A stretch of DNA of 64,000 bases from Burkholderiales bacterium (GTDB taxonomy: Bacteria > Pseudomonadota > Gammaproteobacteria > Burkholderiales > Burkholderiaceae_C), in the NCBI GenBank assembly GCA_016191995.1, contig JACPVA010000133.1, positions 1 to 64,000 of the forward strand. Reading direction: 5' to 3'. Every line of letters begins with the position of its first letter. Positions within the stretch are counted from its first letter, which is position 1. A program made the translations under genes and the position numbers. The notes under the pieces are model-generated. The model did no database searches. It was not told the DNA's origin and saw only the letters and a list, made by a program, of their open reading frames with translations. Shown here in pieces: positions 46,731 to 64,000 of this stretch.

Positions 46731-49700
46731 ATGAGCCTGTTCACGGTCTACGTCTTCACGCCGGCGGGTCTGCGCGACCCGACGCTGGCGATCGCGGCCA
46801 GCCGTGCCGGTGCGGTCGGCATCTACAACGCCGAGTTCGATGCCGACAGCGATGCCGCGATCGAGGCCTTGGACCGCATGGCGCGGCTCGGTCGCGGGCC
46901 GTTCGGGCTGAAGCTCGATGCCGTCGACGACGCCCTGATGGCGGCGATCGACAGCGCCTTGGCGGCCGGTCGCGGGCTGGACTGGCTGATCCTGGATGCG
47001 CCGCTGCTGGAGGTGCAGCGTGCGGCCCTGGCGCGCTGGCGCGCGGCCGGCGTGCGCGTGCTGGCCGAGGTCCGGACCGCGGCGCCGTTGGCCGCAGGTG
47101 TCGAGGCCGCGATCGACGGCCTGGTCGTCAAGGGCAACGAGGCGCCGGGTCTGGTGGGCGAGGATGCCAGCTTCATCCTGCTGCAGAAGTGGATGCGGCG
47201 CAGCGCGCTGCCGCTGGTGCTGCGTGGCGGCTTGACGCCGCAGGTGGCGGCCGCGATCCAGGCCCTGGGTGCGGTCGGCGGCGTGCTCGATTCCCAGCTG
47301 CTGATGCTCGACGAGGTGCGCATCGCCGACGGCGTTCGCAAGTCCGTCGCCCGCCTGTCGGGCAGCGAGACCGTGGCGGTCGGCGACGGCGAGTCCGGCG
47401 AGTACCTGCGCACCCTGGTGCGGCCGGGCTTCGAGGCTGCGCGTCGGCTCGTGAACGAGGGCGAGAGCCTGCGCTGGGACGCGCTGCGCGAGCGGATCGC
47501 GGGCGCCACCGGTTGGGGCGACGCAGCGCGCGGCCTGCTCCCGATCGGGCAGGAGGTCGTCTTCGCCGAGGCCTGGCGGCGCCGCCACGGCAGCCTGCGC
47601 GGCATCCTGTCGGCCTTCGACGAAGCGCTGGCGTCCCAGGCGGCGCTGTCGCGGGCGCATCCGGCGCTGCAACAGGGCAGCCCGATGGCGGGCGCGCTCG
47701 GAACACGCTATCCGATCGTGCAGGGGCCGATGACGAGGGTGTCGGACACGGCCGAGTTCGCGCTCGCGGTCGCCGAGGCCGGCGCGTTGCCGATGATCGC
47801 GTTCGCGCTGCTCGAGGGCCAGGCGCTGCAGCGCTTGCTGGAACGCACCGAGGCGCTGCTCGCGGAGCGGCAATGGGGCATCGGGCTGCTCGGCTTCGCG
47901 CCGCAGACCTTGCTGGACGAGCAGCTGAGGGTCGCGTCGCGCTTTCGCCCTGCCTACGCGATCATCGCCGGCGGCCGGCCGGACCAGGCGGCGCAGCTCG
48001 AGCACTCCGGCGTGCGGACCTTCCTGCACGTGCCGTCGGCCAAGCTGATCCCGGGCTTCCTGGCCGAAGGGGCGCGTCGCTTCATTTTCGAAGGCCGCGA
48101 GTGCGGAGGTCATATCGGGCCGCTGTCGAGCTTCGTGCTTTGGAGCACGATGGTCGACACCCTTGGCGACGAGATCGCCGCCGGCAAGGTCGAAGCCGAC
48201 AAGCTCGAGCTGCTGTTCGCCGGCGGCGTGCACGATGCCGTCTCGTCGGCGATGCTGCAGGTGATGGTCGCGCCGCTGGCCGCGGCCGGCGCGCGCGTCG
48301 GCGTGCTGATGGGCAGCGCCTACCTCTTCACGCACGAGATCGTGGCCAGCGGCGCCATCGTCGAGCCGTTCCAGCGCGAGGTGATCGCCTGCGAGCACAC
48401 GGTCAACCTGGAGTCCGGCCCCGGCCATGCGAGCCGCTGCGCCTACACGCCGTTCGCCGCCGAGTTCTTCCGCGAGCGGGCCCGCCTCAAGCGCGACGGC
48501 GTGCCTGCCGACGAGAGCCGGCGCGTGCTCGACGACCTCATCCTCGGCCGCCTGCGCATCGCCAGCAAGGGCTGCAAGCGCGAGGGCCTGAACGCGCCGC
48601 TGCGCGCGCTGGACGAGGCGCAGCAGCGCGCCGAGGGCATGTACATGCTCGGCCAGGTCGCGACGCTGCGCGACCGCGTGATCGACATCGCGACGCTGCA
48701 CGCCGAGGTCACCGACGGTGCCGCGGCGCGTCTGGCGCGCGACGAGGTCGTCGAGGCGGCGGCGCAGGCTGCCGGCGGCGATCCGGCCGACATCGCCATC
48801 ATCGGCATCGCCTGCGTCCTGCCCAAGGCAGCCGATGCCCGCGCGTTCTGGGACAACATCCTCGCGCGTGTCGACGCGATCACCGAGATCCCGCCGCACC
48901 GTTGGGACTGGAGGCTGTACTTCGACCCCGATCGCCAGGCACGCGACCGGATCTACGGCAAGTGGGGCGGCTTCCTCGACGACATGGCGTTCGACCCCAC
49001 GCGCTTCGGGCTGCCGCCGAAGTCGGTGCAGGCGATCGACCCGATGCAGCTGATGGGGCTCGAGGTCGCGCGCCGCACGCTCGAGGATGCAGGCTACGAC
49101 CAGCGTCCGTTCGACCGCGAGCGCGCGTCGGTGATCGTCGGTGCCAGCGGCGGGGCGGGCGACTTCGGCCTGCAGTACGGCCTGCGCTCCGAGCTGCCGC
49201 GCTTTGCCGGCAGCCTGCCGGCGGAGGTCGCGGCGCGGCTGCCGGAGTGGACCGAGGATTCGTTTGCCGGCATCCTGCCGAATGTCGTTGCCGGCCGCAT
49301 CGCCAACCGGCTGAACTTCGGCGGCATCAACCTGGCCGTCGATGCCGCCTGCGCGTCGTCGCTGGCGGCGGTCTACCAGGGCGTCGCGGAGCTGACCGCC
49401 GGGCGCAGCGACTTCGTCGTCGCCGGCGGCGTCGACACCGTGCAGGGGCCGTTCGGCTACCTTTGCTTCAGCAAGACCCAGGCGCTGTCGCCGCGCGGGC
49501 GTTGCTCGACCTTCGACGCCGAGGGTGACGGCATCGTGATCAGCGAGGGTATCGCGATGGTCGCCCTCAAGCGCCTTGCCGACGCCGAGCGCGACGGCGA
49601 CCGCATCTACGCCGTGATCAAGGGCGTGGGGGCGAGCAGCGACGGCAGGGCCAAGGGCCTGACCGCGCCCTTGCCTGCGGGGCAGCTGCGCGCGATGCGG

Positions 49701-63892: not shown

Positions 63893-64000
63893 GGCTGCGC
63901 GACCTGCTCGACCCCGAGCCGGCACCGCTGCCGCCGGGGGCCGGCATCGTTCGCGACCTGGCCTACGGCGCGGATGCCGCGCAGCAGATCGACCTCTACC
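63889..64000 (+). CDS. Alpha/beta-hydrolase (HSL-like esterase), cut by window end
   Basis: Only the first 37 codons are present. The motif LAYGADAAQQIDLY at residues 24-37 resembles the YGxDxxQxLDLY opening of hormone-sensitive-lipase-like esterases. The ATG lies within the previous stop (ATGA), so it continues the same operon. The catalytic core lies beyond the window. Confidence 0.6.
   Translation, partial: MRLRDLLDPEPAPLPPGAGIVRDLAYGADAAQQIDLY

What the first reader, a model, noticed from the sequence alone, without database searches (positions are those of the whole stretch)
46731..64000. Two-protein PUFA-synthase-like assembly with on-board enoyl reductase and PPTase
The two giant overlapping genes contain every enzyme of an iterative chain-building cycle (KS, AT, ACP, KR, DH, FMN reductase-like barrel), plus the transferase that activates the ACP. 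This arrangement differs from the standard pfaABCDE set: the ER-like barrel is fused at the N-terminus of the first protein and the PPTase at the C-terminus of the second. Downstream genes give a phosphodiesterase, two hydrolases and a propeller protein, which suggests a dedicated specialised lipid.
Basis: partly seen in the sequence, partly recalled or inferred. Interest (0 to 1): 0.9.

Follow-up and report, generated by a model that had tools for sequence, protein, structure and literature searches.

The report
Two-protein long-chain lipid synthase cluster
Two giant proteins that together look able to build a long, saturated fatty chain sit in a gene set shared by bacteria of several phyla; relatives of the synthase are known, but the lipid that this set makes is not.

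Summary
P1 (46731-55001) reads pseudo-ER, ER, KS, AT, one ACP, KR, DH; P2 (54998-59764) reads KS, AT, DH, PPTase. The layout is unusual only against pfaABCDE: Beijerinckia indica, listed in 2011 as a carrier of the Azotobacter-like Type P (phenolic-lipid) synthase, has the same N-terminally fused double barrel and a DH-PPTase partner. KS1 is a relative of the Type P clade but outside it; KS2 has its own clade. New here: barrel 1 is a duplicated ER without the catalytic His (39 of 40 rows), barrel 2 keeps it (40 of 40). AT1 keeps the malonyl Gln/Arg pair (51 of 51); AT2 lacks it (0 of 33), as does PfaB, a long-chain acyltransferase. No FabA-like domain was found, so a saturated chain is expected. 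The cluster reaches upstream to about 33.7 kb: free ACP, phosphodiesterase, propeller protein, sulfotransferase, hydrolases, exporter. Much of it recurs in Proteobacteria and Cyanobacteria. The propeller occurred in 4 of 398 sampled genomes, all with the synthase. The product is unknown; the class is probably the uncharacterised Type O of 2011.

The parts
46731..55001 (+). P1, 2756 aa: pseudo-ER barrel, ER barrel, KS, AT, ACP, KR, DH
   Evidence: model pLDDT 94.1 for residues 1-680
46731..47666 (+). P1 barrel 1 (residues 1-312): degenerate copy of the ER barrel, catalytic His lost (Leu141 here; His in 1 of 40 rows)
   Evidence: hhalign of barrel 1 against barrel 2: probability 95.2, E 2.5e-8; residue counts
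47667..48761 (+). P1 barrel 2 (residues 313-677): FabK-like enoyl reductase, ECGGH motif, His461 in 40 of 40 rows
   Evidence: VIA-align Z 36.0 to FabK 9pl0_E, Z 31.3 to PfaD 4z9r_B; TIGR03151 E 6.7e-24, under its cut-off
48783..50120 (+). KS1, Cys-His-His intact
50457..51365 (+). AT1, malonyl type: Ser, His, Gln and Arg intact
52218..52352 (+). single ACP (LGIDSI)
53214..53882 (+). KR
54102..54941 (+). DH1 (PKS_DH_N + PS-DH), HALDGRYVLP motif
54998..59764 (+). P2, 1588 aa: KS, AT, DH, PPTase
55004..56362 (+). KS2, Cys-His-His intact; own clade
56891..57637 (+). AT2: Ser and His intact, malonyl-specific Gln and Arg lost (Ser and His here)
58547..58936 (+). DH2, weak PS-DH match (22.3 bits, cut-off 23.7)
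59120..59614 (+). PPTase: GVDAE, WCAKEAAAK, VSLSH (hShxH type)
59776..61374 (+). type I phosphodiesterase, alkaline-phosphatase superfamily; D11, T55, D281, H282 and H434 kept in 18 of 18 rows (nucleophile and ligand roles recalled)
61380..62435 (+). alpha/beta hydrolase with C-terminal DUF6316
62435..63892 (+). beta-propeller protein with no Pfam or NCBIfam match at E 0.01, found only with the synthase in the phylum sample
63889..64000 (+). start of a second alpha/beta hydrolase (BD-FAE), ends at contig position 64761
33732..34544 (+). sulfatase-like alkaline-phosphatase-superfamily enzyme; Thr43 in 16 of 16 rows where classical sulfatases have Cys/Ser (recalled)
34547..35458 (+). sulfotransferase (PF13469)
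35562..35852 (+). small conserved protein, no Pfam match
35981..37327 (+). outer-membrane efflux protein
37337..39808 (+). membrane protein with C-terminal HlyD adaptor
39832..40737 (+). methyltransferase
   Evidence: family in 5 of 25 gene-called loci
40764..41066 (+). free-standing ACP, Ser50 in 18 of 18 rows; no Pfam match, weak NCBIfam ACP matches
41080..42669 (+). double short-chain dehydrogenase
   Evidence: family in 4 of 25 loci
45095..46108 (-). PHA-depolymerase-type esterase
   Evidence: NF050058 153.7 bits, cut-off 150; family in 16 of 25 loci

Best explanation
The pair is an iterative, fully reducing type I fatty-acid-synthase-like machine of the secondary-lipid kind. Shown by sequence: KS1, AT1, ACP, KR, DH and FabK-like ER in P1, and KS2, AT2, a weak DH and PPTase in P2, with the KS, AT and ER catalytic residues in place. 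Inferred: AT1 loads malonyl-CoA on the P1 ACP; KS1 with KR, DH1/DH2 and the ER runs full two-carbon cycles; KS2 takes part in some of the condensations; the dead first barrel serves as a built-in dimer partner of the ER; the PPTase activates the ACPs. AT2, which lacks the malonyl pair, hands the finished long saturated chain on, probably to the free ACP. The phosphodiesterase, sulfatase-like enzyme, sulfotransferase and hydrolases then add or trim a head group, and the OMF/HlyD proteins export the lipid. The best single guess is a long-chain, possibly sulfated, envelope lipid. It works like Azotobacter ArsA/ArsD but without a type III PKS.
For: Domains; ER fold Z 36 to FabK; catalytic residues across relatives; PfaB precedent for an AT without the Gln/Arg pair acting on long chains (passages of PMC12895367); no FabA-like domain, against two in a canonical PfaC; Type P relative with the same N-terminus; P1 directly followed by P2 in 20 of 25 gene-called loci (read); families in those 25 loci: propeller 22, sulfotransferase 19, hydrolase 19, HlyD 18, ACP 18, phosphodiesterase 18, sulfatase-like 16, esterase 16; propeller in 40 of 51 genomes picked for the synthase and in 4 of 398 of the phylum sample, all 4 with the synthase.
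Against: No product, expression or enzyme data. The acceptor of AT2 and the head group are guesses. AT2 keeps the His next to the catalytic Ser (34 of 34 rows, one of them a misplaced P1 fragment), where PfaB has Tyr, so the PfaB likeness is partial; P2 has no pfaB family among its 25 NCBIfam matches. The sulfotransferase motif residues vary (Arg12 in 15 and Thr15 in 11 of 25 rows), so sulfation is unsure. DH2 is below Pfam's cut-off. The free ACP lies about 5.7 kb upstream of P1 in the window, not next to P2, and its family was missed in 7 of 25 loci (tblastn does find it in three of these seven). The 25 loci were chosen by me from positives, mostly near relatives; 6 of the 10 synthase-bearing genomes of the phylum sample have no propeller. 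Deep branches (G138, Streptomyces plasmid) carry other tailoring genes.
Confidence: 0.6

Rival explanations
1. A true PUFA synthase that makes polyunsaturated membrane fatty acids with a rearranged gene layout.
For: TIGR02813 PfaA match of P1 over its cut-off; the clade of barrel-fused KS1 is the neighbour of the canonical PfaA KS clade in the tree (joint support 89).
Against: No FabA-like domain and no second, CLF-like KS domain in P1 or P2, and one ACP; KS1 outside the canonical PfaA clade; KS2 outside the PfaC KS clade.
Confidence: 0.1
2. A phenolic-lipid (alkylresorcinol-type) synthase, as Type P.
For: Same N-terminal fusion and DH-PPTase partner in Beijerinckia indica Type P; 8 of 50 genomes with relatives do have a type III PKS somewhere.
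Against: No type III PKS over the cut-off in the window's genome (94% complete; one weak match, 23.7 bits against 27), and in 42 of 50 genomes with relatives none at E 1e-8; KS1 not in the Type P clade. Two limits: PF00195 was not reported for the two Beijerinckia type III PKSs at E 0.01, which matched PF02797 instead, so may undercount; and a partner elsewhere in the genome cannot be ruled out.
Confidence: 0.1
3. The synthase makes a precursor for a secreted small molecule (antibiotic or signal) and not an envelope lipid.
For: OMF and HlyD export genes and hydrolases in the cluster; hybrid specialised lipids of related synthases are antibiotics (introduction of PMC13291983).
Against: No NRPS or further modular PKS among the cluster genes that I scanned; the tailoring set is shared across phyla, which seems more like a structural lipid.
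Confidence: 0.2

Closest known systems
Type P secondary-lipid synthase (ArsA/ArsD of Azotobacter vinelandii; Beijerinckia indica pBIND02)
   Same: Double barrel fused at the N-terminus of KS-AT-ACP-KR (40% identity over the barrels); PPTase fused to a DH in the partner; hShxH PPTase motif, which the 2011 survey gives for Types M, N, O, P, R, S and T (passages of PMC3098273).
   Different: The Beijerinckia partner is a short DH-PPTase (629 aa) without KS-AT, and two type III PKS genes lie between; Pfam shows no DH in the Beijerinckia P1 at E 0.01; separate KS1 clade. Azotobacter ArsA itself was not examined; its C22-C26 product is taken from PMC3098273.
Type O of Shulse and Allen 2011 (Dinoroseobacter, Gloeobacter violaceus, Parvularcula; product unknown)
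   Same: A genome whose single-contig length, 4,659,019 bases, is the one I recall for G. violaceus PCC 7421 carries P1-P2-ACP-phosphodiesterase-propeller in a row; the Rhodobacteraceae Roseivivax and Alexandriicola carry P1-P2.
   Different: Not proven to be the same: that genome also has other KS genes with separate KR-DH matches, G. violaceus is reported to have an hgl island (passages of PMC11804610), and the survey's figure was not held.
Canonical PfaABCDE PUFA synthase
   Same: KS-AT-ACP-KR-DH core of PfaA.
   Different: ER and PPTase fused, one ACP, no CLF, no FabA-like domains.
FabK and PfaD enoyl reductases
   Same: Barrel 2 fold (Z 36.0 to FabK 9pl0_E; 31.3 and 27.2 to PfaD 4z9r_B and 6lkc_A) and conserved His.
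   Different: Preceded by a degenerate duplicate barrel. Thraustochytrid ERb/ERc form a heterodimer on two proteins, but both keep the His (passages of PMC13311796).

Membership tests
Canonical PfaABCDE synthase | ER on a separate protein (PfaD) | tested here: not met
   ER barrel fused in P1; no pfaD_fam match in the window's genome at E 1e-40
Canonical PfaABCDE synthase | Tandem ACPs in PfaA | tested here: not met
   One ACP in P1; 3, 6 and 4 in three canonical PfaA controls. Some P1 relatives have up to 5, so this alone does not separate the classes
Canonical PfaABCDE synthase | Chain-length factor and FabA-like domains in PfaC | tested here: not met
   Neither in P1 or P2; both in the control
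Canonical PfaABCDE synthase | KS1 inside the PfaA clade | tested here: not met
Type P (ArsA/ArsD) | N-terminal double barrel fused to KS-AT-ACP-KR | tested here: met
   shown against Beijerinckia, not Azotobacter
Type P (ArsA/ArsD) | PPTase fused to a DH in the partner protein | tested here: met
   the window's DH match is weak and P2 carries KS-AT in addition
Type P (ArsA/ArsD) | Type III PKS genes in the operon | tested here: not met
   None among the cluster genes scanned
Type P (ArsA/ArsD) | KS1 inside the Type P clade | tested here: not met
   Beijerinckia and relatives form a clade of 6 rows, two of them identical (support 100), without the window's row
Type P (ArsA/ArsD) | C22-C26 phenolic lipid product | not testable with these tools
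   needs lipid analysis
Type O (Shulse and Allen 2011) | PPTase motifs hShxH and x(G/D)xP | tested here: met
   VSLSH; LGAP read by eye; motifs. Shared with other types, so not specific
Type O (Shulse and Allen 2011) | KS clade with G. violaceus and Dinoroseobacter | tested here: inconclusive
   Orthologous P1-P2 in the presumed G. violaceus genome but other KS genes there too; Dinoroseobacter and Parvularcula not examined; the Gloeobacter KS was not put in the tree

The most novel reading that the evidence does not exclude
A new class of exported, sulfated, very-long-chain saturated lipid, made by one conserved pathway in Proteobacteria and deep-branching Cyanobacteria: P1/P2 build the chain with a tandem dead/live ER, AT2 passes it to a dedicated free ACP, and a private propeller protein, a phosphodiesterase and a sulfotransferase finish and present it.
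Probability: 0.3. Interest if true: 0.8.

Novelty: new variant of a known kind. Interest (0 to 1): 0.5.

Why it matters
Few secondary-lipid synthases have a known product. This one is widespread, has a compact two-protein form with its own ER and PPTase, and comes with a conserved tailoring set including a protein family seen only beside it in the phylum sample. That makes the product findable by gene removal and lipid analysis in cultured relatives. It also gives clear tests of two ideas: a dead ER barrel as a built-in partner, and an AT that has switched from malonyl loading to chain hand-off.

Tried and rejected
True PUFA synthase: rejected as the best reading (no FabA-like domain, no CLF, one ACP). 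Type P membership: rejected. Search for Azotobacter through type III PKS in 398 genomes of the G426 family: 0 of 398 at E 1e-20, and no control rang, so it shows nothing. My first AT2 alignment put the malonyl Arg at a residue that is Arg in the window; the joint alignment with AT1 and PfaA controls replaced it. That count had 1 of 34 AT2 rows with Gln and with Arg; one search showed this row to be a fragment of a P1 frame of L134 that my filter had let in, so it is dropped: 0 of 33. The same row was in the KS2 count, which becomes 32 of 34 with Cys (the two Isosphaeraceae rows have Ser); the AT1 count of 51 holds two identical rows (Methylocystis). Motif counts by regular expression were too strict (e.g. 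the KS NxGH motif in 6 of 48) and were replaced by alignment counts. The tree is quick, with SH-aLRT only and long branches flagged; five KS pieces under 380 residues were dropped (listed); the FabF outgroup and PfaC/CLF rows are not trusted for deep order. Foldseek of the propeller model gave Kelch-type propellers at modest TM. Barrel 1 alone was not folded or searched. Families come from my own simple gene caller, which misses genes (tblastn shows, for instance, the sulfatase-like gene in SZAS and G024). Paper searches whose listings (titles and abstract starts) showed no description of this cluster: in an open-licence library only; not every listed paper was opened. Searches were for Azotobacter. 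The 2008 ArsA/ArsD paper was not held, so its domain order is not quoted.

Full report
WHAT IS THERE. Two overlapping genes: P1 at 46731-55001 and P2 at 54998-59764. Pfam and NCBIfam give P1 = NMO/FabK-like barrel, KS, AT, one ACP, KR, DH, and P2 = KS, AT, weak DH, PPTase.

THE N-TERMINUS. Residues 1-680 of P1 fold with pLDDT 94.1. Residues 315-677 match FabK (9pl0_E, VIA-align Z 36.0, rmsd 2.2, 311 residues) better than PfaD (4z9r_B, Z 31.3; 6lkc_A, Z 27.2). A profile comparison of residues 1-312 with 313-675 shows that the first part is a copy of the second (hhalign probability 95.2, E 2.5e-8). Its counterpart of the EGRECGGH motif reads KGNEAPGL; the His position is His in 1 of 40 rows in barrel 1 and in 40 of 40 in barrel 2. 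So one chain holds a dead and a live enoyl reductase barrel. That the dead one serves as a dimer partner is inference; a heterodimer of two ERs is known in thraustochytrids, where both keep the His (passages of PMC13311796).

THE TWO ATs AND KSs. KS1 has Cys, His, His in 52, 53 and 52 of 53 rows, the rest gaps. KS2 has Cys in 32 of 34 and both His in all 34, after dropping one misplaced row. In a joint alignment with three canonical PfaA MATs, AT1 keeps the malonyl Gln and Arg in 51 of 51 rows (two identical), the controls in 3 of 3, and AT2 in 0 of 33; the window's AT2 has Ser and His there. PfaB has lost the same pair and acts on long chains, but it also has Tyr for the His beside the Ser, which AT2 keeps (passages of PMC12895367). 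This suggests a split of work: AT1 loads malonyl, AT2 moves the finished chain. P1 and P2 have no FabA-like domain, while a canonical PfaC used as control has two (276.8 bits), so a saturated chain is expected.

RELATIVES. With the N-terminal 680 residues, 10 of 398 genomes of a phylum sample, the window's included, have a strong match (E 7e-108 or better); the other 109 matching genomes have only weak NMO-like matches. In the genus, 2 of 36 sampled species besides the window's own have a strong match, so it is patchy. Of the genomes of 50 of those 80 loci, 49 match the P2 C-terminal part at E 1e-6, some weakly. A plasmid search found Beijerinckia indica pBIND02, from a genome that the 2011 survey lists as Type P (PMC3098273, passages and section 7): there a P1 with the same double barrel, two type III PKSs and a 629-aa DH-PPTase follow each other.

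TREE. In a 101-row KS tree (quick IQ-TREE, SH-aLRT only), the barrel-fused KS1 rows form one clade of 52 (97), with canonical PfaA outside. Beijerinckia and relatives form a clade of 6 rows (100) inside it, apart from the window's row, which pairs with Rubrivivax albus (98). KS2 forms a separate clade of 35 (100), apart from PfaC KS and CLF. Within the Proteobacteria the two subtrees look alike by eye, as expected for a pair inherited together.

THE CLUSTER. I gene-called 25 loci: 19 of the 21 fetched (Gamma_GL140 and one Acidobacterium left out), the window, and 5 of the 10 other genomes (G114, G338, G173, G156, G309 left out). P2 directly follows P1 in 20, is one gene apart in 3, several genes apart in Lysobacter, and was not recognised in Methylocystis (read). 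Accessory families: propeller in 22, sulfotransferase 19, hydrolase 19, HlyD 18, ACP 18, phosphodiesterase 18, sulfatase-like 16, esterase 16 of 25. The propeller protein has no Pfam or NCBIfam match at E 0.01; its model is mostly strand, with mean pLDDT 81.7, and matches Kelch-type propellers. It was found in 40 of 51 genomes picked for the synthase, and in the phylum sample in 4 of 398, all four among the ten with the synthase; the other six of the ten lack it. By hand, the chance of that under independence is about 2e-7, but two of the four are of one genus, so this overstates it.

MECHANISM AND PRODUCT. Most likely a fully reducing iterative synthase making a long saturated chain that is handed to a free ACP and dressed by alkaline-phosphatase-superfamily enzymes and perhaps a sulfotransferase, then exported. 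The phosphodiesterase keeps D11, T55, D281, H282 and H434 in 18 of 18 rows; the sulfatase-like protein has Thr43 in 16 of 16, where classical sulfatases have Cys or Ser (recalled), so it is probably not a classical sulfatase. The sulfotransferase motifs are kept less well. The roles of the tailoring enzymes are inference from family names.

WHAT IS KNOWN. The synthase probably equals Type O of 2011: a genome with the contig length I recall for G. violaceus PCC 7421 has P1-P2-ACP-phosphodiesterase-propeller in a row. But that genome has further KS genes and G. violaceus is reported to have an hgl island, so this is not proven. The paper listings I saw showed nothing on the accessory set (open-licence library). 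The finding is a variant of a known kind with an unknown product.

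Noticed in passing
window 28101-31123: Orn/Lys/Arg decarboxylase (28101-30359) followed by an inositol-monophosphatase-family gene; the latter recurs near the cluster in 6 of 25 loci, role unclear.
   Followed up: partly
window 31403-33598: 731-aa protein with six DUF11 stretches, its family beside the cluster in 6 of 25 loci: perhaps a surface protein.
   Followed up: no
window 45095-46108: Esterase scoring over the cut-off for extracellular PHA depolymerase type 1, and a PHB accumulation regulator just past the window (L041:8861-9313): a possible link to PHA.
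   Followed up: no
L222 14962-29936; G138 locus (L057/L058): Deep-branching P1-P2 pairs of a Streptomyces plasmid and an unnamed proteobacterium; the Streptomyces one is followed by ACP, hydrolase, glycosyltransferase and methyltransferase genes, and G138 lacks the sulfotransferase set: probably other products.
   Followed up: partly
L093, L101: Two Solimonas P1 proteins have five ACPs where the window's has one, within the same clade.
   Followed up: no
L105 genome (Candidatus Brocadia MAG_8): This MAG encodes two P2 C-termini, one 50% identical to the window's on another contig than the second; possible binning contamination.
   Followed up: no
L221 17590-32209: Rhodobacteraceae plasmid with a long-branch P1 and a 1296-aa PPTase protein, with a dioxygenase, two hypothetical proteins and a methyltransferase between them.
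   Followed up: no
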